Part shown: one piece after another, positions 1,905 to 62,697 of the stretch
Numbering within the stretch: the stretch's first letter is position 1
How the letters are laid out: each line of letters opens with the position of its first letter
DNA from: a virus
IMG/VR virus record: IMGVR_UViG_3300037245_001419
Span: 147,778 to 211,777 of that record
Length of the DNA: 64,000 bases
Direction: 5' to 3' (one strand)
Made by a program: the position numbers and the translations under genes
The notes under the pieces: generated by a model
The model's database searches: none
The model's input: only the letters and a program-made list of their open reading frames with translations
Told to the model about the DNA's origin: nothing

Positions 1905-2105
1905 ATGATTATTTGTGTTGAGTGTCACACAGAGATGAAAGTTGAGAAAAATGGTGTTGTTGTCCGCTATGGTGGAAACCACTGTTACTCAGGAGACAGT
2001 TGGAAATGCCCTACATGCGGTAAAATGGTAATCAATTGCAATAACAGCCCGTACCCTTCAGATGAACCTTTAGATCCGAAACACGATATCGAAATGAATC
2101 AATGA
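1905..2105 (+). CDS. Zinc-ribbon protein, 66 aa
   Basis: Cys4 and Cys7 (CVEC) with Cys35 and Cys38 (CPTC) form a likely zinc ribbon; Cys27 is an extra cysteine. Role unknown; nucleic-acid binding is plausible. It opens the rightward operon and overlaps the ligase start (ATGA). Confidence 0.8.
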   Translation: MIICVECHTEMKVEKNGVVVRYGGNHCYSGDSWKCPTCGKMVINCNNSPYPSDEPLDPKHDIEMNQ

Positions 2106-3124
2106 TAAAAATAGTAGATGACTTACTGTACATGATTCGCCAGTTGAAAGCAGTTGAATTGTCAATAGACAAGCTAGACATTATAGAGAAATATCCTCAA
2201 TGTAGAAATTTATTGGAGATAACCTATAATCCTTTTAAGCACTTCGCAGTTGGTACAAAACAGATAGATAAAGAGTTAGAATCTACTTTAGTTGATATTC
2301 CGAAAATAGATAAGCCGTACATCATGATCCATCACTTCTACAATTTTTTAAACGATTCGTTGCTTAACAAAAGATACAGTCGTTCTGTAGGAATCAAAGC
2401 GATAAAGAGATGGTGTACAATATTTCCCGAATATGAGACCCTTATTATCAACATTTTCAATAAGAACTTGAAGTGTGGAATAGATGCTCAGCTTATCAAT
2501 TGTATCTATCCGAAACTTATACCAATGTTTAACCCTACACGACCCAAAATTTGGGATACGATGTGTCCTAAGAGGGTCTTTTCTGAGTACGTTACAATGG
2601 AGAAGGTTGAGGGCGAACTGGTCTACATGAGCATTAGAAACCGAAAGGTGAACATATATAGCAAGCACACCATACCTATTGTCACATTGAATTACCTTAA
2701 GGATGAAGTACAGTCATTTATCGACATTACTGATATTGATAATATCATGATTGAAGGTCATGTATTCATAGGCAACCAGAGCTTTGATGAGTCTCACCAG
2801 AGCATCGTTAGAGGCAGTAAGAAGTTAACTAATATAATATTTAAAGTGTATGACATACTAACCCTCGATGAGTTCGAGGTGTATTACGACGAGTCAAAAA
2901 AATACACAGATCGACATAAGAGATTCGCAGAGATGGGTTTCTCTAATTTAAGTATGATACAAGTCGTACCATACCAGCAGTATGATCCAAACGGTGAACA
3001 CATACTATCACACATGAAAACAACAATTTCCGATAACAATTGGAAAGGAGCAATTCTTCGTAAGAACATACCTTACGACATTAAAATTTCGTATAACATA
3101 ATTAAAGTATACCCCAATTCGTAA
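2102..3124 (+). CDS. ATP-dependent DNA ligase-like nucleotidyltransferase
   Basis: Would seal nicks through a lysyl-AMP intermediate. Seen: YNPFKHFAVG near residue 42, a phage-ligase N-terminal signature; candidate adenylated Lys168 in EKVEGEL, where the usual KxDG is KxEG; MIEGHVF (motif III, about 216); KVYDIL (about 248); KGAILRK (motif IV, about 315). The 340-residue chain stops just after the motif V region, so the C-terminal OB-fold domain of DNA ligases is not visible. It could act on RNA ends or need a partner; DNA ligase remains the best call. Confidence 0.75.
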   Translation: MIKIVDDLLYMIRQLKAVELSIDKLDIIEKYPQCRNLLEITYNPFKHFAVGTKQIDKELESTLVDIPKIDKPYIMIHHFYNFLNDSLLNKRYSRSVGIKAIKRWCTIFPEYETLIINIFNKNLKCGIDAQLINCIYPKLIPMFNPTRPKIWDTMCPKRVFSEYVTMEKVEGELVYMSIRNRKVNIYSKHTIPIVTLNYLKDEVQSFIDITDIDNIMIEGHVFIGNQSFDESHQSIVRGSKKLTNIIFKVYDILTLDEFEVYYDESKKYTDRHKRFAEMGFSNLSMIQVVPYQQYDPNGEHILSHMKTTISDNNWKGAILRKNIPYDIKISYNIIKVYPNS

Positions 3125-18223: not shown

Positions 18224-18609
18224 TATTTAGCCTTCCTTAATTCGTCACACTTTTCCCAACAAACACTTTCAGTCACATCTTTAATAACTTCAAATGCTTC
18301 ATTCAATTTATCTAATGCGTCATAGTATTTTTCATTAAACTTATCCATAGGGGCGTTTACTTTAGTTGATAGAATCGCTTCTGCTCTTCTGTCAGCAGTG
18401 GTATCCATTTGATTCCATAATTCGTCGAAAAAGAATTTAGGATTAACATCAATACCATCAATCTGCATGGTAATATCATATGACTTGTTGGATTTATTTT
18501 TGTCTAACCATTCACCGTTAAGTTCTTTAAGCATACCAACAGCTTGTAAAAAGAAGTGACCCATAAGCTCTTTATTGTTGTGCAATAGTTCTTCTCTATC
18601 AAATTTCAT
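18223..18609 (-). CDS. Hypothetical protein, 128 aa
   Basis: Helical, acidic. Start overlaps the end of the CCA-adding enzyme by one base. No family recognised. Confidence 0.7.
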   Translation of the reverse strand: MKFDREELLHNNKELMGHFFLQAVGMLKELNGEWLDKNKSNKSYDITMQIDGIDVNPKFFFDELWNQMDTTADRRAEAILSTKVNAPMDKFNEKYYDALDKLNEAFEVIKDVTESVCWEKCDELRKAK

Positions 18610-19976
18610 TACGCCTCCAAACTAAAGTTTTTTATGTAGTCTCTGATTGCATCCATGTTGTCAAGGTCAACCATGTTGTCGTATATCCATTGCTTAGTAC
18701 CTTTAATGATAACCCCAAGCTCTTTACAGGGTTTATCAATACCAGTAATTTCCATTACAAGCTTACCAGATACAAGTTTATCAACAGGCATATTGTTACG
18801 GTTAACAGGGTCGTTATACTTCTTAATAACAAAGTTAACATACTCCATCTTATTATCCCATGCCGATTGAGGAGATAGCTGTTCACCCCTGCACATTTCA
18901 TCACAAAACGCAACCTTTACTAGTGCATCCCAGTTCACATTGTCAGTGAGAGTAATCAGCTTTGATACTCTCATTCCCTTCAGTCTATGGAATTTCATAT
19001 GATTAACACAAGGGTAAACTAAAGTAGCCCTAGTCTTATTATCGATTTTAAGGCGGTCACAGATGGCGTTAACAATAGCCTCCCCTGCACCCTCATGGCA
19101 GTGATAAGTGTTCTTACCGTCCTTTACAACGTGCGTAAGAGCCTTTCCTACATCGTGTAATAGTATAGCCATGTTGATAACAGGATTTTCTTCTTTATTA
19201 ACAGCTAAAGCACTCATAGTATGCAACCATGCGTTTGCACCTTCTGGATGTGAACTTAAATCATGGGGAAATTGATCTAATATGTCAACTTCTGGTAAGA
19301 TATACTTCAGTAGGTTAGAAGTTTTCAATAACTCTAATGCATATGCAAAGCGTTCGCCAGTCTGTTCAGCCATTTTAAACAGCTCTTTTGCGATACGTTC
19401 TTGAGCTACTTTAGTTATGTTGTGGGCGAGTTCTTGAATGGCTTCCATTGTATCATTTTCGATTACAAAATCCATTCTACTTGCAAATCGAATAGCTCTT
19501 AACATTCTTAAATAGTCTTCAGCAAACCGCTCTTTAGGGTCTCCAACAGTTCTAATAATTTGATTTTTAATATCACATTTACCATTATGATAATCAATTA
19601 CACCATAGTCTTTTCTTAAACCCATAGAATTAATAGTAAAATCTCTTCTTTTAGTATCCTCTTCAAAGGTTACACCCAGTACTACATTGTCCGGTCTTCT
19701 ACCATCAGAATATTCACCATCAGTTCTGAATTGAGCAACCTCAAAGTGATCGTCTTTATATTCTACAACAACAATACCAAAGACTTTGTTCTTACCAATA
19801 TCATGAGTGGGGAATAACGATTCTATCTTATCCATGGGAACATTGGTTGCAATATCAATATCAGATGCAATTCTATTCATCAATGAATCTCTAACAGCAC
19901 CACCAACAATATAAGCTTCCCCATACTCTGATAGAAGTTTTATTATTTCCATTCCTTTAGATAATGCATTACTCAT
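18609..19976 (-). CDS. cca: tRNA nucleotidyltransferase (CCA-adding enzyme)
   Basis: Adds or repairs the 3' CCA of tRNAs. Class II polymerase-beta fold: IVGGAVRDSL with the GG at residues 25-26, DID catalytic pair at Asp39 and Asp41, then KRRDFTINSMG and the RRPD motif region. An HD domain follows (AILLHDVGKALTH). 455 aa is normal. Ribosome site GAGGTAGT. The tRNA-like gene 2.6 kb away lacks an encoded CCA, so the enzyme may serve it as well as host tRNAs during degradation. Confidence 0.95.
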   Translation of the reverse strand: MSNALSKGMEIIKLLSEYGEAYIVGGAVRDSLMNRIASDIDIATNVPMDKIESLFPTHDIGKNKVFGIVVVEYKDDHFEVAQFRTDGEYSDGRRPDNVVLGVTFEEDTKRRDFTINSMGLRKDYGVIDYHNGKCDIKNQIIRTVGDPKERFAEDYLRMLRAIRFASRMDFVIENDTMEAIQELAHNITKVAQERIAKELFKMAEQTGERFAYALELLKTSNLLKYILPEVDILDQFPHDLSSHPEGANAWLHTMSALAVNKEENPVINMAILLHDVGKALTHVVKDGKNTYHCHEGAGEAIVNAICDRLKIDNKTRATLVYPCVNHMKFHRLKGMRVSKLITLTDNVNWDALVKVAFCDEMCRGEQLSPQSAWDNKMEYVNFVIKKYNDPVNRNNMPVDKLVSGKLVMEITGIDKPCKELGVIIKGTKQWIYDNMVDLDNMDAIRDYIKNFSLEA

Positions 19977-49266: not shown

Positions 49267-49563
49267 TTAGTTTACTTCCCATGGTTCTTCAGATGATGGT
49301 GTAAGGAACTCAAATAAGATATTCTTAAGTAATTGAATATAGTCTTCATTTGAGATATTTGGATCGAACTTAACAATACCATTAGTTATTTGATCAACAG
49401 CGTAGTACATGAAATCATCGAACTGAGAGTTATCACTGGCTTTGTGTAGATCTGGTTCTTCCAGATATGTGTCAACTAAAGTAGCATACCTGTTGTAAGT
49501 TACTACAAAAGCTTTCGTCTTGTCAGAAGGCCCCACCAATCTATCTAGAGATTCAACATTCAC
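49267..49563 (-). CDS. HLDTLVGP/PWEV family member 1, 98 aa
   Basis: GTG start directly after the upstream stop (TAAGTG). Diverged head ESLDRLVGP, tail EEPWEVN. The middle is unrelated to other members. GGGAGG in the upstream gene's tail codons gives the ribosome site. Confidence 0.7.
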   Translation of the reverse strand: MNVESLDRLVGPSDKTKAFVVTYNRYATLVDTYLEEPDLHKASDNSQFDDFMYYAVDQITNGIVKFDPNISNEDYIQLLKNILFEFLTPSSEEPWEVN

Positions 49564-49743
49564 TTAGTTAACCTCCCATGGTTTGTTGTTAACGCCTTCT
49601 AACTCTGCATGAGTATAAAGTCTTGGTTTGAAAATGCTTGGAATAGTCATACCTGGTGTAGGGTTGCGATTAAACTCTTCTGCAGCACAGAACACAGGTT
49701 TTGTTTTAACGAGCGCATCCAGGTGTTTGACTAGATCAATCAC
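49564..49743 (-). CDS. HLDTLVGP/PWEV family member 2, 59 aa
   Basis: GTG start overlapping the upstream stop (GTGA) with AAGGA ahead; an ATG three codons earlier is badly placed. Head VKHLDALVKT, tail NKPWEVN. Shortest member. Confidence 0.65.
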   Translation of the reverse strand: MIDLVKHLDALVKTKPVFCAAEEFNRNPTPGMTIPSIFKPRLYTHAELEGVNNKPWEVN

Positions 49744-50069
49744 GGAGGACATCCTTCGTCATAATCATATGTGTGTGGCCCATCTTCGCCAGCTTTCATT
49801 TCGACCACCCAATCCAGATATTCTTTAGATGGTTCATCTAGATCAAAGCGATGATCAATCGTTCCGTCTCTCCATTTCGCTACAGATATGAGAACCTTCG
49901 TACCTTTTGCTATACGAGCACATTGATCCATGACCCATGTCTTATGATGTTCTCCATCGATTCCACCATACTTCTCAATCCAAAGTAACATCCAATCATG
50001 TATCTTGTAAGAGCTATATTCATTTGGATCAGCCATTGGGAATTCCCCTAAGTAATTTTCTTCAGACAT
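49740..50069 (-). CDS. Hypothetical acidic protein, 109 aa
   Basis: Starts MSEENYLGEFPM after AAAGGAAACTCA. Trp-rich middle (HDWMLLWIEKYGG). Not an HLDTLV member. No family recognised. Confidence 0.7.
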   Translation of the reverse strand: MSEENYLGEFPMADPNEYSSYKIHDWMLLWIEKYGGIDGEHHKTWVMDQCARIAKGTKVLISVAKWRDGTIDHRFDLDEPSKEYLDWVVEMKAGEDGPHTYDYDEGCPP

Positions 50070-50143
50070 TGAGTTTCCTTTAGGTTGTAAAAAAGCTCCA
50101 GGCTGAGTACTATTACCCTAGTACAGCCCAAAAGCACATTACT

Positions 50144-50323
50144 TTAGTTATTGATCTTCAATGGGCATTTGATAGATTCTCCTGACAATGCACTTGCTAA
50201 AAATCTTTTTACTTTTGGATGACTGCAATATGATGCAGTTCCACTTGTACACCCATAATTGAACCGTTTGATGCCACCATATTGGCACACTCCGGTTTTG
50301 GATAATTCGCACGGATAACTCAT
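50144..50323 (-). CDS. Conserved phage Cys-rich protein, 59 aa
   Basis: ATG after GGGAGAAAT. MSYPCELSKTGVCQYGGIKR then GCTSGTASYCSHP matches a small phage protein family of unknown role with conserved cysteines. The stop TAA lies in a motif copy. The overlapping frame 50148-50348 is rejected. Confidence 0.7.
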   Translation of the reverse strand: MSYPCELSKTGVCQYGGIKRFNYGCTSGTASYCSHPKVKRFLASALSGESIKCPLKINN

Positions 50324-50358
50324 ATTTCTCCCAGGTAAACCCGATCATTTTAAACTAA

Positions 50359-50387
50359 AGTATAATAGAAACTTATAGACGTGTCAA
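50359..50387 (-). promoter_or_regulatory. Leftward half of a divergent promoter
   Basis: TTGACA, 17 bases, TATACT, where the -10 runs into the motif (TATACTTTAGTT). Confidence 0.8.
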
Positions 50388-50404
50388 TAGAATAAATGTA
50401 CTTT
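50376..50404 (+). promoter_or_regulatory. Rightward half of a divergent promoter
   Basis: TAGACG, 17 bases, TACTTT from the motif. The two -35 boxes are adjacent (TAGACGTGTCAA). Drives the lipoprotein at 50441. Confidence 0.65.
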
Positions 50405-50440
50405 AGTTAACTCTATTAATTTAAACATAAGGAATGCTAA

Positions 50441-50869
50441 ATGAGAGTTTTATTACTAAGCATAATAACAATCATGATTGGTTGTGCTGGAATACCTGTA
50501 AACTACCATAACGATCATCCTCGGCTGAACGGATCTAAACACACATATATAGGACAAGACATATACTTTGAAGAGTTCATTATCGGAGAGGGTGATTATT
50601 CAGGTTATATTTTTGGTAACAGTTGTCGTTATGAGCTTATTCTTATGATGGTATCAAAGTCAAAGGTTGTCATAGAATATAATGAATATATAAAATCTAG
50701 TTCCTATGGTGAGTTTCGCATGGATGGGCCTTGGCTCATAAGACAAGGATTCACTAAACAATTCGAATATGAACTTACAGATGGAAAAGGTGAGATCGCA
50801 TATAAAAAATTAAGATTTGTTATTGTTGGGGTTGAAAATCACGGAATATCAACTATTAGGTCAAACTAA
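50441..50869 (+). CDS. Lipoprotein, 142 aa
   Basis: Signal peptide with lipobox MIGC (Cys15). Beta-rich mature part. Ends at SN in AACTAAAGT, so the stop is in the motif. AAGGAATGCTAA ribosome site. Confidence 0.75.
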   Translation: MRVLLLSIITIMIGCAGIPVNYHNDHPRLNGSKHTYIGQDIYFEEFIIGEGDYSGYIFGNSCRYELILMMVSKSKVVIEYNEYIKSSSYGEFRMDGPWLIRQGFTKQFEYELTDGKGEIAYKKLRFVIVGVENHGISTIRSN

Positions 50870-50886
50870 AGTAAAAAGGAAATAAC

Positions 50887-51939
50887 ATGAAGATAATAAT
50901 ACTATTAGTATTATCAATTTTGTCGGCTGTAAGTGGCGCAAACATAGATGAAGATTATTTAATTTGTCGAGAATTTGAAAAGAAAAAGGATTGGCCTAAA
51001 GTAATTGATTATTGTGACAAATCTATAAAAAACAAGCCTGAAGGCAACAACCCATATTATAAGTTATGTCTAGCACATAGTATGGTAGGCAATAATGAGA
51101 AAGCTCTTGAAAATTGCACCATAGTTATAGTTCGTAAAAAATTAAGTCTAGATTTACAATACTCGTCATATTATTATAGAGCGTTGGCAGGTTATAATTT
51201 AAAGTATTATGATAAAGCTATATCTGATATAGATAATGCTATCACATTAAACAAAAAAGGTATGGCGCAATATATATTACAAGGTAAAATTAGATATAGT
51301 TTAAGTGAATATAAAAAAGCGGATATAAGTTTTTCTCATGTTATCAACCAGGATCGCAATAATTACACTGCAACATATGGTAGATATCTTGCAAGGTTAA
51401 AGTTAGGTAATTACAAAGGTGCATACACTGATATAACATATGCCATAGATATTAATAAAACCAAAGAAATATCCAAGTTATATGTATTACGTGGCATAGT
51501 ATCGAGTAAATTGTCTAGGCACAAGCAGTCATTTGCTGATTTTGATCACGCACTTAGTATAGATTCTACAAATTATAACTCACATATTGGAATAGCAAAA
51601 CTTAAACATAAATTGTGCGACTATTACGGTGCTATTCGTTCATATAACCATGCTATAAAATTAAGTGTCAATAATTCATCAATTTTAACACATCGTGCAG
51701 ATTCATGGTCGGAATTAGGTGAATATAAAAAAGCATTCGCAGACTGCAACCTTGCTATTAAAATAGATGCTAACTACGCAGAAGCATATTATATGCGTGG
51801 TATTATACAATTAAAACGAAATATACTAGACAATAAAGGGTTATATGATTTGTCTATAGCTGCAAATTTGGGTATGTTTGAGGTATATAAAGTTTTAAGT
51901 GAAATACACAATGAACGAAAATCAATCAAACTAAAGTAG
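50887..51939 (+). CDS. Secreted TPR-repeat protein, 350 aa
   Basis: Signal peptide (cleavage near VSGA), then eight or so TPR units, for example YYRALAGYNLKYYDKAISDI and AYYMRGIIQLKR. Likely a periplasmic or surface protein-interaction scaffold. Ends LK at CTAAAGTAG. Confidence 0.85.
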   Translation: MKIIILLVLSILSAVSGANIDEDYLICREFEKKKDWPKVIDYCDKSIKNKPEGNNPYYKLCLAHSMVGNNEKALENCTIVIVRKKLSLDLQYSSYYYRALAGYNLKYYDKAISDIDNAITLNKKGMAQYILQGKIRYSLSEYKKADISFSHVINQDRNNYTATYGRYLARLKLGNYKGAYTDITYAIDINKTKEISKLYVLRGIVSSKLSRHKQSFADFDHALSIDSTNYNSHIGIAKLKHKLCDYYGAIRSYNHAIKLSVNNSSILTHRADSWSELGEYKKAFADCNLAIKIDANYAEAYYMRGIIQLKRNILDNKGLYDLSIAANLGMFEVYKVLSEIHNERKSIKLK

Positions 51940-51965
51940 TATAAATATTGGTAAAAGAGGTACAG

Positions 51966-52127
51966 ATGGCTTACTATCCTAATCATCCACCTACGCTATA
52001 TGGTGACGATGCAGATTATTTTTTAAACAAGTTAGATGAGATTGCTAAGCTTCCTAAGCAAGTAATATCTGATGAAAAGCGTAAGAAGTTTGAAGAGTTA
52101 TTCAGAAGATCCGGTATGCGACTCTAA
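51966..52127 (+). CDS. Small protein, 53 aa
   Basis: MAYYPNHPPTLYGDDADYF...; soluble, charged C-terminus. Stop overlaps by 4 bases the stop of the convergent family member 3, both within CTAAAGTAC. Function unknown. Confidence 0.65.
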   Translation: MAYYPNHPPTLYGDDADYFLNKLDEIAKLPKQVISDEKRKKFEELFRRSGMRL

Positions 52128-52468
52128 AGTACTTCCCATGGATCACACTCACGTTGATCATTGTTCATCATATATCTGCAGAGGTTATCGATATTAGCTG
52201 AAGTATCGTAACCAGGTTTGTAGTTATATTGTTTTAGTACATTGGAGTATAGTTTGCTACCATCGTAAACCCTATTTCTATTTTTGTATTCAACTGTGTA
52301 TAAGCAGTTATTAGGATCAGCCATATCAACCCATCGTCCAATCTTGATATCACCATCAACTAAAGTATAATTCATTTTCAGTGTATAGGCTTTTAACATA
52401 GCGTTATACAATCTATCACATTCAGGAGTTCTTGGCCCAACTAAAGTATCCAGGTGTTTAGGGTTCAT
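52124..52468 (-). CDS. HLDTLVGP/PWEV family member 3, 114 aa
   Basis: ATG at MNPKHLDTLVGP in an ATGA overlap with member 4; the four codons before it belong to the tail of member 4. Tail CDPWEVL with stop TAG in the motif. Variable middle. Confidence 0.75.
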   Translation of the reverse strand: MNPKHLDTLVGPRTPECDRLYNAMLKAYTLKMNYTLVDGDIKIGRWVDMADPNNCLYTVEYKNRNRVYDGSKLYSNVLKQYNYKPGYDTSANIDNLCRYMMNNDQRECDPWEVL

Positions 52469-52668
52469 GTTACTTCCCATGGTTCGTTGTATGAATCTGA
52501 GAAGGATATGACACTAATATCACATCCTTCTGGACATAGATATTCGAGAGTTTTTGATATTCCATCTGGGGTATATTCTAAGTATGTAAGCATAAGTTTA
52601 AATTGTATATGATGGATTTTGCAATGATCGCAAGGCCCAACTAAAGTATCAAGGTGTTCTATATTCAC
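52465..52668 (-). CDS. HLDTLVGP/PWEV family member 4, 67 aa
   Basis: GTG start one base after the upstream stop (TAA-A-GTG inside the motif). Head EHLDTLVGP, tail NEPWEVT. CDHC pair after the head. Confidence 0.75.
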   Translation of the reverse strand: MNIEHLDTLVGPCDHCKIHHIQFKLMLTYLEYTPDGISKTLEYLCPEGCDISVISFSDSYNEPWEVT

Positions 52669-52669
52669 T

Positions 52670-53020
52670 TTAGTTTACTTCCCATGGTTCATAAGAACTA
52701 TCCGTATTGCGAGCAAGCATTTTACATTTCTCATCTAAAGACGTAAATCCAATATCGTCAGTAGTACCATTGATATCATGAGTTATATTATCATCGAACA
52801 CCCATATACACCCTGATGTATCCGTTTTAAATACCCTAAGCATTTTAGAACTAACTATGCCAGGGTTATCAATTTTTACTTCGATTGTAAATATACCATC
52901 AGATATAACATCCCCTACTACACAATCATAATACGTTAATAATATAAATTTGTGTAGTTTTTTATATAGATGGCACTTCGGCCCAACTAAAGTATCAAGG
53001 TGTTCAACTAGTTCATTCAC
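52670..53020 (-). CDS. HLDTLVGP/PWEV family member 5, 116 aa
   Basis: GTG start (VNELVEHLDTLVGP) one base after the stop of member 6. The ATG ten codons earlier lies within member 6's tail. The end resembles member 8 (LDEKCKMLAR). Tail YEPWEVN. Confidence 0.75.
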   Translation of the reverse strand: MNELVEHLDTLVGPKCHLYKKLHKFILLTYYDCVVGDVISDGIFTIEVKIDNPGIVSSKMLRVFKTDTSGCIWVFDDNITHDINGTTDDIGFTSLDEKCKMLARNTDSSYEPWEVN

Positions 53021-53021
53021 T

Positions 53022-53330
53022 TTAGTTAACTTCCCATGGGTTCGAGACATAGGTTAGAGAACTCGGTCTATAACGGCATGAGTACACATAGACAACAGCA
53101 TCAAATATTTCTGCTTTAATATCTTTGCGGACTTCGAAACGATCACAACCTACTTCAGTTATAAATCCTTCCTCGATAAGCCTATCTCTTGTGCTCTCGA
53201 TAATCTTTACTCGATTCTGAGATGGGAATAGAACTTCCCGTTCGACATCTCTATAGAACTTATCCCATATGATTCTCTCATACCCATCGGGTTTAACTAA
53301 AGTATCAAGGTGTTTAATGAGATCAACCAT
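53022..53330 (-). CDS. HLDTLVGP/PWEV family member 6, 102 aa
   Basis: Head IKHLDTLVKP, tail SNPWEVN. The centre (STRDRLIEEGFI) resembles members 9 and 12. Starts inside the end of the upstream zinc gene. Confidence 0.75.
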   Translation of the reverse strand: MVDLIKHLDTLVKPDGYERIIWDKFYRDVEREVLFPSQNRVKIIESTRDRLIEEGFITEVGCDRFEVRKDIKAEIFDAVVYVYSCRYRPSSLTYVSNPWEVN

Positions 53331-53511
53331 ACCACTCCATATCTAGAGTACATATTATTTTAACTCCACAGTTGGGACATTTACCATAAGCGTCTTTCAT
53401 GTAATATATTGTACCTTTTGGATAAGATTCTTTAATCTTCAGTACTTTAAACTTTACATACTTCCTGCAGTTCTCACATGTCTTTTCAGCATATTCTTTT
53501 TCAATTTCCAT
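53323..53511 (-). CDS. Zinc-ribbon protein, 62 aa
   Basis: CENC and CPNC pairs. Starts ATG one base after the stop of member 7; GGGAAG in that gene's tail codons plus TACTTTAGT form its leader. Confidence 0.75.
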   Translation of the reverse strand: MEIEKEYAEKTCENCRKYVKFKVLKIKESYPKGTIYYMKDAYGKCPNCGVKIICTLDMEWYG

Positions 53512-53512
53512 A

Positions 53513-53836
53513 CTAAAGTACTTCCCATGGTATTGGTTTAATATATATTCCCATAATAAGAAGTGCTTTAGCTTCTGTTCGGATTTTTTCAGGAGAATGG
53601 CATATCATACGATAGCTATCATATTCATACGTTATTACATTTTCACTATCTGACATATATTCACAATGTATTACTATACGTCCATTGTGTTGATTATAGA
53701 TTCTAATGGTATCCGTATTGATAATCTGTCTGTTACTATGCATAGCCTTTTTAAAGTCTTCACATACGTCATTAATTCGTATGGTACGCTCGTCCGGCCC
53801 AACTAAAGTATCCAGGTGTGTTATTCTACTGTCCAC
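53513..53836 (-). CDS. HLDTLVGP/PWEV family member 7, 107 aa
   Basis: GTG start overlapping member 8's tail codons (CCGTGGAC). Head ITHLDTLVGP, tail IPWEVL, stop TAG in the motif. Confidence 0.75.
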   Translation of the reverse strand: MDSRITHLDTLVGPDERTIRINDVCEDFKKAMHSNRQIINTDTIRIYNQHNGRIVIHCEYMSDSENVITYEYDSYRMICHSPEKIRTEAKALLIMGIYIKPIPWEVL

Positions 53837-54186
53837 GGCTCACTGATTCCTTTAGATCTAATCAACATCCTACATTTATCATCGAGGTCAACCAATCCCT
53901 TTCCTTCTCTAGATATATTAGTAGAAATATTACTTTTAAATATGTACAATTGTACTTTAGTTTCGACATTAGTAATTATGTAACAAAGTTCATTCCTGGT
54001 TACATTACCGTTAAAATCTGCAGTATCAGCTAAAGCACCAACGCACATGTGATATGGATATTCATCAATAACATCATCTGCTTTAAGATCCATGGCTGGA
54101 AACTGAAGTATAAAGTCATACAGTTTTTGATGATGTGGGGATCTGCTCCCAACTAAAGTATCAAGGTGTTTTACAATCTCGTACAT
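53821..54186 (-). CDS. HLDTLVGP/PWEV family member 8, 121 aa
   Basis: Head VKHLDTLVGS, tail SEPWTVE (diverged). LDDKCRMLIR near the end is shared with member 5. The start overlaps the upstream gene by 26 bases. Confidence 0.75.
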   Translation of the reverse strand: MYEIVKHLDTLVGSRSPHHQKLYDFILQFPAMDLKADDVIDEYPYHMCVGALADTADFNGNVTRNELCYIITNVETKVQLYIFKSNISTNISREGKGLVDLDDKCRMLIRSKGISEPWTVE

Positions 54187-54613
54187 ACTGCCCCAGGTTG
54201 TTATTTAGATCAGCGATGTAATCAGCTAGTTCCTTCCCTATGACACCATAAGGAAATAGTTCTTCACCGTGTTCAGTCTCTATAACTTTGCACCAACAGT
54301 CCTTCCCATCAAAGCAATCTTTAACTATCCACTTGCAAATGAACGGCTCTATATTCTTAAGGACAAACTCTGCAGTATCTTCATCCATATCGGTCAATAC
54401 TTTAGTTACCTTCATATTGTGTATATCAGTGATGTATTTAGCCATCTCTTTAGGCATACAGAAGTACTCGAACACTTCATAATCATTATCAGGCCATTGA
54501 TCCGTTACAACCAGATCTACATGGTCTCCATACTTATTAATACAACCTACGACCCACTTTAGTTTATATGAGTCTTCTTGTTGTTTAATGTATTTCTTCT
54601 CGTCCCAGGTCAT
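54161..54613 (-). CDS. Hypothetical protein, 150 aa
   Basis: Starts MTWDEKKYIKQQ in an ATGA overlap. Cys/Trp-containing soluble protein whose last codons (CKTP) are the HLDTLV coding region of member 8 in another frame. No family recognised. Confidence 0.75.
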   Translation of the reverse strand: MTWDEKKYIKQQEDSYKLKWVVGCINKYGDHVDLVVTDQWPDNDYEVFEYFCMPKEMAKYITDIHNMKVTKVLTDMDEDTAEFVLKNIEPFICKWIVKDCFDGKDCWCKVIETEHGEELFPYGVIGKELADYIADLNNNLGQYVRDCKTP

Positions 54614-54990
54614 ACAACCTCATATATGTATATGGTGTTTTTAACAATGTCATCCCAGTATCGTTCAAGAGCAGGAGGATATATAACCATAGCACCTTTT
54701 TCTGTCGTAGCCACAGCTATAATATTTGCAGGATCTAGGCTTTGTATTACGTTGGTTGCAATCACGTCATCAACGTCATCACAGTTAACAATCTTATTAA
54801 TTGGCGTAAGTTCCATTAACTTTAGTTTCTCTTCCAGGGTCTCGACTTCTGGCAAATCTTTGACAAGTTTTTCGATAGAATCTGTCATTAATACTGGACG
54901 CATATCAACCGTAGCGTCAAGATCTAACGCATAACGGAATTTGTTATCTGAGTTTGTAACAACCAGATTTGCAACTATATATTTTTTCAT
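54610..54990 (-). CDS. Hypothetical protein, 126 aa
   Basis: Start taken at MKKYIVANLV, after GGGAGA and a motif copy (TACTTTAGTTATG); a GTG six codons earlier is the alternative. No family recognised. Confidence 0.7.
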   Translation of the reverse strand: MKKYIVANLVVTNSDNKFRYALDLDATVDMRPVLMTDSIEKLVKDLPEVETLEEKLKLMELTPINKIVNCDDVDDVIATNVIQSLDPANIIAVATTEKGAMVIYPPALERYWDDIVKNTIYIYEVV

Positions 54991-55008
54991 AACTAAAGTA
55001 TCTCCCAC

Positions 55009-55398
55009 TTAGTCTTCTAGATAATGGATTTCAGGTTCTGCAGATTCTTCATACATGACAATAGCGTACATATCTCTCATACCGGAACCATCAGCTATAT
55101 GTGGTTTGATCCAATCGAGGAATGTTTCTATCTCATCCTCATAATTTTTTATATTGCATCTACTAGATAAGTGCCATGCCTTCGATATTTTGTCAAACCA
55201 CATCTTTGCAACTGGATCTATTACACCGAAGTAATAACTTCCAGATCCATTCACAGGGTTCCTCATATCACAAAAATCTTGTATGACTTTAGATTTATCG
55301 TGGTCAATATCAAAGAGATACTTGCATGTTTCTATAATTTCTGGTGGGGTATTTTCGTGAAGTCTTGCCCCAAATATTAGTTCTGTGTACATTCCCAT
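55009..55398 (-). CDS. Conserved phage protein (MGMYTE family), 129 aa
   Basis: MGMYTELIFGARLHE then TPPEIIETCKYLF: a widespread phage hypothetical family. Strong GGAGGAATT ribosome site. Function unknown. Confidence 0.8.
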   Translation of the reverse strand: MGMYTELIFGARLHENTPPEIIETCKYLFDIDHDKSKVIQDFCDMRNPVNGSGSYYFGVIDPVAKMWFDKISKAWHLSSRCNIKNYEDEIETFLDWIKPHIADGSGMRDMYAIVMYEESAEPEIHYLED

Positions 55399-55417
55399 AA
55401 TTCCTCCGGTTAACTAA

Positions 55418-55446
55418 AGTATAATAGAAACTTGTAGACGTGTCAA
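55418..55446 (-). promoter_or_regulatory. Leftward half of a divergent promoter
   Basis: TTGACA, 17 bases, TATACT; near copy of the one at 50359. Confidence 0.8.
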
Positions 55447-55463
55447 TAGAATTAATGTACTTT
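55435..55463 (+). promoter_or_regulatory. Rightward half of a divergent promoter
   Basis: TAGACG, 17 bases, TACTTT. Points at the structured leader. Confidence 0.65.
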
Positions 55464-55469
55464 AGTTTC

Positions 55470-55618
55470 AGCCGGAGAATCGGAATACAGGTGATTCTCT
55501 AAGAGAGTCTGCGACATGGCATAACATCTGAACGGTTTCTATAGAAGTAGGTGCAAGTTATATAGAGGTGCTAGTAAGATGGCCTAGGATAGTTGTACTC
55601 TGTCCTCCCAGACTCTTT
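55470..55618 (+). ncRNA. Structured leader or small RNA
   Basis: Starts about where the rightward promoter should initiate. GAGAATC pairs with GATTCTC early; GAGTCTG near 55506 pairs with CAGACTC near 55610, followed by a T run. Could be a small RNA or a regulatory leader of the 55644 gene. Confidence 0.45.
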
Positions 55619-55643
55619 TTTAAACTAAAGTAAATAGGAAGTT

Positions 55644-56309
55644 ATGAAAACGATATTAATATTAATAGTGCTGCTATCATCTATGGGTTTTTCAAATCAG
55701 TGCATTAGACTTGACGATTCAGATGCTTATGTCGATTGTTTAATTAAGGCAAATGAGGGTAAAGAAGAACCAGAATCTAAACAAGTAGAGTATATAGAAG
55801 ATTATTATACACATAATGAGGATTCATTAAGAATATATACACTTGTCGGAGCTGGTTATACACAGGGAACCTTTACTAGTTTTAGTAAAATTAACATGTT
55901 TATTGGCGTTATACCAGAAGGTTGGAATAACGGAATTATGTTCAGTGTTAAGATTTCAAATACAAAACCATCTAATATAAAAGATACATCACCACATAAT
56001 TCTAAAGTTTACCGCATTGTCGATGGTGAGATACTTCAACTAAATTTAGGTTTTCCATTCCCATTGCATAATAATATATTTTTGATTCCTATTGTGGGAG
56101 TGGCATCGGTAGAGAGATACACCCAAATCCTCGATGGGGATGATGGTACATATCATGTAAAAAAAGATAGAGACTCTTATAATGTTTTTGGTATGGGGTT
56201 CTTATTTAAAACTAATCGTTTTATTTGGGGAGTTGACATTGAATATCCTTTTGATAGATTCCCAACGATAGGAATTAATATAGGATTATTTATTACGGAG
56301 TTAAACTAA
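55644..56309 (+). CDS. Secreted, possible outer-membrane beta-barrel protein, 221 aa
   Basis: Signal peptide (cleavage near GFS). The mature part has alternating strands (LNLGFPFPL, IFLIPIVGVAS, VFGMGFLF) and ends in a short strand, like small porin-type barrels. Stop TAA lies in a motif copy. Confidence 0.65.
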   Translation: MKTILILIVLLSSMGFSNQCIRLDDSDAYVDCLIKANEGKEEPESKQVEYIEDYYTHNEDSLRIYTLVGAGYTQGTFTSFSKINMFIGVIPEGWNNGIMFSVKISNTKPSNIKDTSPHNSKVYRIVDGEILQLNLGFPFPLHNNIFLIPIVGVASVERYTQILDGDDGTYHVKKDRDSYNVFGMGFLFKTNRFIWGVDIEYPFDRFPTIGINIGLFITELN

Positions 56310-56320
56310 AGTAGGTTACG

Positions 56321-56500
56321 ATGAAAGATATTAAGAAAGGTTACTACTGGGTAAAGTTTTACAACCATGATGTAATGCAAGTAATGTTATTTAATGGCAA
56401 GAATTTTGAAGGCTTCAAGAGTGACAAATTAATTCATGATGAGATAGAGGGTTACGAGTATATTGATTACCCACCAGTTGACTTGTGTATCGACAACTAA
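56321..56500 (+). CDS. Small protein, 59 aa
   Basis: MKDIKKGYYWVKFYNHD...; beta-rich. Ends DN at AACTAAAGT; the same motif copy supplies the stop of the convergent member 9. Function unknown. Confidence 0.7.
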   Translation: MKDIKKGYYWVKFYNHDVMQVMLFNGKNFEGFKSDKLIHDEIEGYEYIDYPPVDLCIDN

Positions 56501-56814
56501 AGTACTTCCCATGGCCCACCCTTCGATGGAGTACTCCACGATAGTGTAAAATACTTGGTTGCTAGTTCAGTAATATCGTCATGCATATATAGTAGAACAT
56601 AATATGGTCGTGAGGGTTCCCAGTATTTAGATTTCTCTAAGACATTTTTGTCTATAAGAACGATCCTCATATCGACAAACACTTCGTTATTGTAGAAATT
56701 ATGGAAAGGATCAGTAAGAGCCTTCACTATTTGCTTTACTAGTTTACCGTATATCTTAGATGCGAACTCAGAGGGTTCAACTAAAGTATCAAGGTGTTTA
56801 ATAATTTCAGTCAT
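56497..56814 (-). CDS. HLDTLVGP/PWEV family member 9, 105 aa
   Basis: ATG overlapping the upstream stop (ATGA). Head IKHLDTLVEP, tail GGPWEVL. Centre (FYNNEVFVDMRIVLI) is related to member 12. Confidence 0.75.
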   Translation of the reverse strand: MTEIIKHLDTLVEPSEFASKIYGKLVKQIVKALTDPFHNFYNNEVFVDMRIVLIDKNVLEKSKYWEPSRPYYVLLYMHDDITELATKYFTLSWSTPSKGGPWEVL

Positions 56815-57005
56815 ACTTTAATATCTTTTTTATTGGCTATTACTAGTCCATTATCATTCAGTGTTTTAATAAATTCATGCCACTCTATGGTATATGGTGG
56901 AGCGTAATCGTACCCATCATTAAACAATTCACCTTCAACTACCATTTCCATCTTAGGAAATAATCGTTTTAACCGTTCAATCAATAATCTATGCTGGTTT
57001 TTCAT
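56811..57005 (-). CDS. Hypothetical protein, 64 aa
   Basis: Starts MKNQHRLLIERLKR, three bases after the stop of member 10; GGGAGG in that tail serves as ribosome site and the motif spans the junction. Function unknown. Confidence 0.7.
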   Translation of the reverse strand: MKNQHRLLIERLKRLFPKMEMVVEGELFNDGYDYAPPYTIEWHEFIKTLNDNGLVIANKKDIKV

Positions 57006-57008
57006 ACT

Positions 57009-57311
57009 TTAGTTTACCTCCCATGGTGGGCATATTAAATAAAGTGTAGTAATTGATTTACAATAACTGTCTAATATGATATTAGCTATAGAACTTCCAT
57101 CATAATCAATTACAAATGGTTTTGCATTCTTGTATGTTATCTCAAAACGTTTAATATGATTATCAGTCACGTTGACAATTTTAATATTATTATCAGAATA
57201 TGTACAATCTTTAATTGATAGCTTATCAAATGTAGAAGTTAATAGATTGTGTAAATCTATGTATTCCTGGGGTATCGGCCCAACTAAAGTATCCAGGTGT
57301 TGTATATTCAC
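57009..57311 (-). CDS. HLDTLVGP/PWEV family member 10, 100 aa
   Basis: GTG start one base after the stop of member 11, both in the motif. Head QHLDTLVGP, tail PPWEVN. Confidence 0.75.
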   Translation of the reverse strand: MNIQHLDTLVGPIPQEYIDLHNLLTSTFDKLSIKDCTYSDNNIKIVNVTDNHIKRFEITYKNAKPFVIDYDGSSIANIILDSYCKSITTLYLICPPWEVN

Positions 57312-57312
57312 T

Positions 57313-57702
57313 TTAGTTTACCTCCCAGGGCTTCATAGAATCAATGTTTTTAATTCTATATGTATGATGAGTTCCCAGATGGGTGTTCGCTTGTGTCATA
57401 TAGCTGTTCTCAACCAATGATATGTAATGTTCCACATCACAATCTTCAAATATTATCATCACTTCACCCTCACCAGTTTTCATAAAGGTTGCATGTCCAT
57501 CATCTACTACAAGGTGCTTAATCTCAGTAAGACTACGCTCATAAAATGAGTGGTATAGTTCCATATCGGCATATACTTCATAAACAAACAATGGCTGATT
57601 TAAAAAATCATCCACAATGGTTGATAGATAGTGATAATATATTGGTGGTACACTACCAGATATTATCGGCCCAACTAAAGTATCCAGGTGATCGACATTC
57701 AA
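57313..57702 (-). CDS. HLDTLVGP/PWEV family member 11, 129 aa
   Basis: TTG start one base after the stop of member 12 (TAA-A-TTG, a motif variant). Head DHLDTLVGP, tail MKPWEVN. Confidence 0.75.
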   Translation of the reverse strand: MNVDHLDTLVGPIISGSVPPIYYHYLSTIVDDFLNQPLFVYEVYADMELYHSFYERSLTEIKHLVVDDGHATFMKTGEGEVMIIFEDCDVEHYISLVENSYMTQANTHLGTHHTYRIKNIDSMKPWEVN

Positions 57703-57703
57703 T

Positions 57704-58015
57704 TTAGTTTACTCCCCATGGATCACCATACGGTTTAGCATCTACTAGCATCATTAGAGTTTCAGTTATATATCTATCTGCAGCAGGATTTATGCGATAC
57801 ACAGGGTTTCTAGATGAGTATCGTCCTTTCATGGACTTAGTTACAAGCTTAAGTTTTATAAGTCTTTCCCTAAGTTCCACCACAGTACAATCGCTATAGA
57901 ACATAGCGGATGGATCTGTCAGTCCTGCTTTGATTAAAGGGCACATACTTTCTTGTCTGTCCGCATGTCTAGTACATGGTTTAATTAAAGTATCAAGATG
58001 TTTAATATCATTCAT
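57704..58015 (-). CDS. HLDTLVGP/PWEV family member 12, 103 aa
   Basis: ATG overlapping the upstream stop (ATGA). Head IKHLDTLIKP, tail GDPWGVN (diverged). Centre MFYSDCTVVELRERLI related to member 9. Confidence 0.75.
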   Translation of the reverse strand: MNDIKHLDTLIKPCTRHADRQESMCPLIKAGLTDPSAMFYSDCTVVELRERLIKLKLVTKSMKGRYSSRNPVYRINPAADRYITETLMMLVDAKPYGDPWGVN

Positions 58016-58258: not shown

Positions 58259-58287
58259 AGTATATTTTAAATATGTACTATTGTCAA
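58259..58287 (-). promoter_or_regulatory. Leftward promoter of the member 12 unit
   Basis: TTGACA, 17 bases, TATACT running into the motif. Confidence 0.8.
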
Positions 58288-58731: not shown

Positions 58732-59043
58732 GTGAAATATTTAATAATTTTAATACTATGTATGTCGTTTGGATCTGCTTTAGCTGATGACACTGAAGAT
58801 ATTACTCTTGATGAGTTGTGTAAATATGCTGGATATGCGTACATGTTAGGTGATGTGTCTGTATATAATGAGGTACTGCAGCAAGCGTTTGAACAAATAC
58901 AAGTACCACCAGGTGACAGCCTTGAAATAACAACACGTAGATGTTGGGATTTGGTTGATAATAGTAAAAAACTAGGTCTTCCTATCAGTGAAAGTGATGC
59001 AATAGCAAAAAAATTAGTTCGTCTTAACAATCAACTAAAGTAG
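58732..59043 (+). CDS. Secreted protein, 103 aa (pair with 62410)
   Basis: GTG start. Signal peptide cleaved near GSALA. LCKYAGYAYM, GDSLEITTRRC and KKLGLP align with the 62410 protein; two conserved cysteines may form a disulfide. Ends LK at CTAAAGTAG. Confidence 0.75.
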   Translation: MKYLIILILCMSFGSALADDTEDITLDELCKYAGYAYMLGDVSVYNEVLQQAFEQIQVPPGDSLEITTRRCWDLVDNSKKLGLPISESDAIAKKLVRLNNQLK

Positions 59044-60573: not shown

Positions 60574-60610
60574 AACTAAAGTATCCAGTTATTTAACGGT
60601 TACTTTAGTT
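60574..60610. terminator. Hairpin of inverted motif copies between convergent genes
   Basis: AACTAAAGTA and TACTTTAGTT pair over 10 bp. No strong T run, so termination is likely but unproven. Confidence 0.55.
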
Positions 60611-62409: not shown

Positions 62410-62697
62410 ATGAAAACAATTATATTAATGGTGCTGATATGTACTTCAGTTTATTCATCTGACTTTAGCGAGTACGAAACAAAGTCTCTATGTGCATATG
62501 CAGGTTATGCTATTCATGTAAAAGACAAGTTTATGGCATCCGTGTCTCTTAGAATTGCTACCCATAGAGGTGACAGTATAGTATTTGATTGTGGACAGAT
62601 AGCATTGAAGGTAGTTGTATCTAAGAAGATGCCTAGTGGTTTTGATGAGTATCAAAATGACTTCTATAACATCGTTACATATAAATTATTAAACTAA
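62410..62697 (+). CDS. Secreted protein, 95 aa (pair with 58732)
   Basis: Signal peptide cleaved near VYSS. LCAYAGYAIH and GDSIVFDCGQ align with the 58732 protein. The stop TAA lies in AACTAAAGTA. Confidence 0.75.
   Translation: MKTIILMVLICTSVYSSDFSEYETKSLCAYAGYAIHVKDKFMASVSLRIATHRGDSIVFDCGQIALKVVVSKKMPSGFDEYQNDFYNIVTYKLLN

What the first reader, a model, noticed from the sequence alone, without database searches (positions are those of the whole stretch)
49267..58015. Twelve-member gene family with fixed ends and variable middles (HLDTLVGP ... PWEVN)
Twelve small proteins begin within about 15 residues with HLDTLVGP and end with PWEV plus N, L or T, while the 40-110 residues between are mostly unrelated. 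The head codons contain the motif (GATACTTTAGTT) and the tail codons contain CCATGGGAAGT, which doubles as ribosome site of the next gene. This looks like a cassette family in which a core is exchanged between constant ends, or rapidly diverging effectors or anti-defence proteins. I recognise no described family.
Basis: partly seen in the sequence, partly recalled or inferred. Interest (0 to 1): 0.88.

Follow-up and report, generated by a model that had tools for sequence, protein, structure and literature searches.

The report
Phage protein family with constant ends
A large T4-like bacterial virus carries twelve small proteins that share the same short head and tail but have mostly unrelated middles, and the shared head contains a 9-letter DNA signal that the virus repeats about 330 times across its genome; I found no described match for either the proteins or the signal.

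Summary
Twelve minus-strand genes (49267-58015) share an N-terminal ..HLDTLVGP and a C-terminal PWEV. The middles are at background DNA identity, and only three pairs (F5/F8, F1/F4, F3/F10) are detectably related. Family libraries, PDB, named phages and bacterial genomes give no relatives. One related virus (DNA polymerase 77% identical) has two members, so the ends are a conserved protein feature.

GATACTTTAGTT in the heads and AACTAAAGT/ACTTTAGT at the tails are copies of one element, ACTT[T/C]AGTT. It occurs about 330 times in this genome (roughly 8 expected). Inside orthologous genes it is conserved far beyond codon expectation (12 of 15 versus 2.1).

All twelve genes lie towards the distal end of three operons, each headed by a promoter-like site whose -10 overlaps the element. 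Low-confidence structure models give two different core folds between low-confidence ends.

Best reading: a fast-diversifying array of early accessory proteins (host takeover or counter-defence) sharing short terminal docking peptides, under element-linked control, and able to expand by recombination at the repeated ends. No evidence supports a dedicated cassette-exchange machine. Function is inferred, not shown.

The parts
57704..58015 (-). family member F1 (HLDTLIKP ... PWGVN); core related to F4
57313..57702 (-). family member F2 (TTG start; HLDTLVGP ... PWEVN)
57009..57311 (-). family member F3 (GTG start; HLDTLVGP ... PWEVN); core related to F10
56497..56814 (-). family member F4 (HLDTLVEP ... 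PWEVL); winged-helix-like model
53821..54186 (-). family member F5 (HLDTLVGS ... PWTVE); core related to F8
53513..53836 (-). family member F6 (GTG start overlapping F5 tail; HLDTLVGP ... PWEVL)
53022..53330 (-). family member F7 (HLDTLVKP ... PWEVN)
52670..53020 (-). family member F8 (GTG start inside the element; HLDTLVGP ... PWEVN)
52465..52668 (-). family member F9 (short; HLDTLVGP ... PWEVT)
52124..52468 (-). family member F10 (ATG overlaps F9 stop; HLDTLVGP ... PWEVL); alpha-beta4-alpha model
49564..49743 (-). family member F11 (short; HLDALVKT ... PWEVN; head lacks the element)
49267..49563 (-). family member F12 (SLDRLVGP ... PWEVN; head lacks the element, one copy further inside)
58259..58287 (-). 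promoter-like site TTGACA-17-TATACT, -10 fused to the element; heads the F1-F4 run
55418..55446 (-). promoter-like site TTGACA-17-TATACT, -10 fused to the element, inverted element 20 bp upstream; heads the F5-F10 run
50359..50387 (-). promoter-like site TTGACA-17-TATACT, -10 fused to the element, inverted element 20 bp upstream; heads the F11-F12 run
56811..57005 (-). 64-aa non-family gene between F3 and F4
53323..53511 (-). 62-aa non-family gene with two CxxC pairs between F6 and F7
52640..52675 (-). example of a bracketed gene start: AACTAAAGT and ACTTTAGTT facing each other around the GTG start of F9

Best explanation
A clade-specific family of small accessory proteins of a T4-type phage, expanded here to twelve copies. 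Shown: the N-terminal peptide (xHLDTLVxP) and the C-terminal peptide ([PG]W[EA]V) are conserved as protein between two phages, while the 40-112-residue cores have diverged beyond recognition except for three pairs. Shown: ten of twelve heads carry in frame (ACT TTA GTT = Thr-Leu-Val) one copy of the phage's own element ACTTYAGTT, and a second copy often lies at the preceding stop/start junction. Shown: all twelve lie towards the distal end of three operons, each headed by a promoter-like site whose -10 overlaps the element. Inferred: the genes are early; the ends are short docking peptides for one common partner or destination; the cores are exchangeable adaptors aimed at changing host targets (host takeover or counter-defence); an unidentified phage protein reads the element and controls these genes; the repeated 18-30 bp end sequences let T4-type recombination duplicate, delete and shuffle members.
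For: Ends conserved as protein: two members in the relative with LNTLVRP/LTTLVLP and GW[AE]VD, whose tails carry neither element nor ribosome-site role; F11 and F12 keep LDxLV without the element. Ends also constrained as DNA: GGG 8 of 8, ACT 10 of 10, other codons concentrated. Cores diverged. Two predicted topologies with lowest confidence at the ends. Operon layout; one member of the relative lies directly behind the same promoter type. Element conserved at DNA level: 12 of 15 versus 2.1 expected, P 1.7e-8. Precedent in T4 for amplifying a counter-defence gene at 6-10 bp microhomology (PMC9391042).
Against: No function, partner, expression or structure is measured. Models are weak (pLDDT 64 and 55) and ends may be low-confidence only because alignments are shallow. 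No second array with different cores was found, so exchange is not shown. Orphan early genes of T4-type phages are so common that location alone says little about function.
Confidence: 0.45

Rival explanations
1. The ends are constant mainly because the DNA is: gene junctions carry control signals (element, ribosome site, start codon) and the shared peptides are a by-product without protein function.
For: The element covers Thr-Leu-Val of the head and the stop codon of the tail; TGGGAGGT in the tail is a good ribosome site; synonymous positions are nearly fixed.
Against: Tails in the relative keep W[EA]V without element or following ribosome site; F11 and F12 keep LDxLV without the element; H, L, D, G/K, P outside the element are kept too.
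Confidence: 0.15
2. Virion-packaged internal proteins like T4 IPI-III: the head is a capsid-targeting peptide on variable anti-defence bodies.
For: Short constant N-terminus on variable bodies in a T4-type phage; T4 targeting peptides are about 10 residues (PMC9026906); a gp21-like protease gene is read next to the major head gene (by eye).
Against: The L/I-x-E cleavage logo is absent from the head in 13 of 14 members (sequence). T4 internal proteins are described as basic; most members here are acidic. A conserved C-terminus is not part of the T4 design. No head protein or other ORF held shares the head.
Confidence: 0.12
3. Site-specific cassette array (integron-like): cores are swapped by a recombinase acting on the repeated ends.
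For: Several junctions repeat a roughly 50-bp tail-element-start-head block; inverted element pairs at junctions.
Against: No Phage_integrase or Resolvase family match in the record. Element is genome-wide and conserved inside core genes. Junctions differ in spacing and overlap. A recombinase of another family is not excluded.
Confidence: 0.06
4. The family are DNA-binding regulators, perhaps readers of the element, that control their own operons.
For: The F4 model's best PDB neighbours are mostly PadR/MarR-type winged-helix proteins; family starts are bracketed by elements.
Against: Best Foldseek E is 0.095; the F10 group has another topology; the relative has as many elements per kb but only two members.
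Confidence: 0.1
5. Ordinary tandem paralogues in a hypervariable early region with no shared docking role; conserved ends merely mark common ancestry and slow decay.
For: Three core pairs are still related; T4-type phages are full of such gene clusters.
Against: The break from 0.86 to background identity within about 27 bases is too sharp for uniform decay, and synonymous sites in the ends are nearly fixed.
Confidence: 0.12

Closest known systems
T4 internal proteins IPI, IPII, IPIII
   Same: short constant N-terminal peptide on variable bodies, T4-type phage, bodies linked to anti-defence (PMC9026906, PMC9391042)
   Different: family is mostly acidic, lacks the L/I-x-E cleavage logo, has a conserved C-terminus, lies in element-controlled operons
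T4 dmd-tifA segmental amplification
   Same: accessory genes of a T4-type phage multiplied by recombination at short homologies (PMC9391042)
   Different: experimental identical copies there; here ancient, diverged copies with constant ends; recombination itself is not shown here
Stoperators of cluster A mycobacteriophages
   Same: short sites scattered over a phage genome, at promoters and in short intergenic gaps (PMC9283540)
   Different: 13-mer, more than twenty sites, orientation follows transcription; here 9-mer, about 330 sites, no strand preference, many inside genes
SPbeta repeated element bound by MrpR
   Same: repeated operator-like element of one phage genome (PMC10516654)
   Different: 15-bp motif, ten prominent peaks, all in promoter regions
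Start-associated sequences of cluster K mycobacteriophages
   Same: repeats tied to starts of different genes, some with inverted repeats, role unknown (PMC3203893)
   Different: 13-bp, upstream of starts and mostly one orientation; here also inside coding sequence and at stops
Mobile regulatory cassettes of T4-type phages (Arbiol et al. 2010; known here only as a citation, and from memory)
   Same: repeated promoter modules between accessory genes, proposed to aid shuffling
   Different: here the repeat also encodes protein ends, and RNA hairpins at the junctions are not better than shuffles

Membership tests
T4 internal proteins | N-terminal targeting peptide with L/I-x-E cleavage site | tested here: not met
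   only F4 (LVE) of 14 members has it in the head (sequences)
T4 internal proteins | basic protein | tested here: not met
   net charge negative or zero in 13 of 14
T4 internal proteins | packaged in the virion | not testable with these tools
   needs virion proteomics
Integron-type cassette array | tyrosine recombinase in the genome | tested here: not met
   no Phage_integrase match in the record; control genomes all ring
Integron-type cassette array | same ends with different cores in other genomes, exact breakpoints | tested here: inconclusive
   one relative has two members with other cores, but no shared flanks; no near-identical array found
Stoperator system | repeated short site at promoters and short intergenic gaps | tested here: met
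   41% of sites within 30 bp of a stop codon, 44% intergenic; overlap with -10 of four promoter-like sites
Stoperator system | site orientation follows transcription | tested here: not met
   33 same strand, 43 opposite between co-directional genes
Stoperator system | repressor that binds the sites | not testable with these tools
   no binder identified; one HTH protein of the window has no match in the relative's partial record
Any catalogued protein family | profile match in Pfam, PHROGs, NCBIfam, PADLOC or PDB sequences | tested here: not met
   only isolated single-member weak hits, best E 0.0068; none in PADLOC or PDB

The most novel reading that the evidence does not exclude
The phage clade uses a genome-wide 9-bp address (ACTTYAGTT, about 330 copies) read by an unknown DNA-binding or recombination protein, and the constant heads of this family are coding copies of that address; the array is a built-in diversity generator whose cores are exchanged between addressed, constant ends that dock on one partner.
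Probability: 0.13. Interest if true: 0.85.

Novelty: new variant of a known kind. Interest (0 to 1): 0.57.

Why it matters
Small early proteins of T4-type phages are a rich source of unknown host-takeover and counter-defence functions. A family recognisable by its two ends, whatever the core, would give a handle for testing a dozen such proteins together. The element is a second, separate result: a strict 9-bp sequence kept by selection inside genes of a T4-type phage clade, with no known reader, raises a testable question about how these phages organise transcription or recombination.

Tried and rejected
RNA stem-loops at the junctions: not better than dinucleotide shuffles in five junctions. 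A fixed promoter geometry around all element sites: no constant -35 or -10 signal. Intrinsic terminators in the region: none. Relatives in viral contigs by head pattern, head DNA, one member of the relative and one core pair: only the 104-kb relative. Contigs found by the inverted-pair pattern: four are chance hits with one pair each. Phages with roughly 50% identical head protein: neither family nor an excess of the element. Named phages with three members as protein queries: no credible hit. Bacterial genomes: three pattern matches, none confirmed. Fold comparison: no significant match in PDB or viral models. An HTH protein of the window as a clade-wide element reader: no match in the relative, whose record is partial.

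Full report
What the window is. The window is bases 147778-211777 of a 211777-base virus record. The record encodes T4-type genes: DNA polymerase, UvsX-like recombinase, DnaB-like helicase, primase and single-strand binding protein, portal, major head protein, terminase and tail sheath. Best named polymerase hits are cyanophages and a pelagiphage at about 30-33% identity. The nearest informative record is a 104-kb contig with a 77% identical polymerase.

The observation. Twelve ORFs on the minus strand carry head and tail as described, and a profile of them finds no further member in the record. DNA identity among the twelve is high only over about 27 bases at the head and 18 at the tail and is at background on both sides. 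With ends removed, three pairs of cores are significantly similar; profile comparison of cores adds no link.

Protein or DNA? Both. The relative has two members, L085:8042-8398 (minus) and L085:10001-10372 (plus), with KKLTTLVLP...GWEVD and HLNTLVRP...GWAVD. The profile of the twelve alone finds them at 2e-4 and 1.5e-3; the later scores of about 1e-20 include them by construction. Their tails carry no element and do not serve as a ribosome site, so W[EA]V is kept as protein. F11 and F12 keep LDxLV without the element. Synonymous positions in the heads are nearly fixed, with rare codons (GGG 8 of 8), so the DNA is constrained or recently homogenised as well.

The element. ACTTTAGTT occurs 120 times in the window. 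Single-base neighbours of the 10-mer TACTTTAGTT have a median of one copy; the main exception is the T-to-C variant, ACTTCAGTT, with 44 copies. Over the pieces held, ACTTYAGTT totals about 330 in this record and 160 in the relative, 0.6-2.6 per kb, on both strands. My estimate from base composition is about 8 for this record. In 92 orthologous gene pairs, sites with unchanged residues are conserved 12 of 15 times against 2.1 expected from per-codon conservation (P 1.7e-8), and the variant 7 of 7. In the window 44% of sites are intergenic against 20% of random positions, and 41% lie within 30 bp of a stop codon against 14% (this rests on a simple gene caller of my own). More distant relatives show no excess. 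A text search for the 9-mer in papers gave no phage-element report in its listed results.

Operon layout. Four promoter-like sites in the window have -10 TATACT fused to the element: 61352, 58287, 55446 and 50387, all minus. Three head the runs that contain the family. 58287 leads to two short ORFs, F1-F3, a 64-aa gene and F4. 55446 leads to three genes, F5, F6, a 62-aa CxxC gene and F7-F10. 50387 leads to two genes, F11 and F12. One member of the relative lies directly behind the same type of site. Early expression is inferred from the sigma-70-like form; nothing here measures expression, and the region as a whole has no excess of promoter-like sites over shuffles.

Structure. The F10 model is alpha-beta4-alpha, mean pLDDT 64. 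The F4 model is winged-helix-like, pLDDT 55, with weak PDB neighbours mostly of PadR/MarR type. In both, head and tail are among the least confident parts. No match is significant. Two folds are likely, not established.

Mechanism. I favour an array of early accessory proteins whose ends dock on a common partner and whose cores face changing host targets. The repeated ends also offer short homology for duplication and exchange; T4 amplifies a counter-defence gene at 6-10 bp microhomology (PMC9391042). Docking, targets and exchange are inferences.

Verdict. Observation confirmed, interpretation partly supported. The family and its architecture are new to the libraries searched, but the kind of locus, a hypervariable accessory region of a T4-type phage, is known. 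The genome-wide element may be the more unusual part.

Noticed in passing
whole record, window 1-64000; relative contig IMGVR_UViG_3300043172_001415: Strict 9-bp element ACTTYAGTT, about 330 copies in the record and 160 in the relative, both strands, conserved inside orthologous genes; facing inverted pairs are commoner than the opposite arrangement (15 versus 5 within 60 bp). Reader and role unknown.
   Followed up: partly
window 10000-46000, minus strand: A repeated promoter-like module TTGACA-N4-TTAGTTAATTAAC-TATCTT(TAATAATAG), about thirty copies; some carry the element in the spacer.
   Followed up: no
window, 12 places: Perfect palindrome TAGTTAATTAACTA, ten of twelve copies intergenic; it belongs at least partly to the promoter module above.
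   Followed up: no
window 50441-50869, 50887-51939, 55644-56309, 58732-59043, 62410-62697: Plus-strand genes interleaved with the family operons begin with signal-peptide-like or lipoprotein-like N-termini, one with TPR-like repeats (by eye).
   Followed up: no
window 60575-60610: Element pair with the same spacing and CTGGATACTTTAGTT context as the family gene starts, but without a family gene.
   Followed up: no
window 18609-19976 and 2102-3124: ORFs that read like a CCA-adding nucleotidyltransferase and an ATP-dependent DNA ligase (by eye, untested); no tRNA genes found in the window.
   Followed up: no
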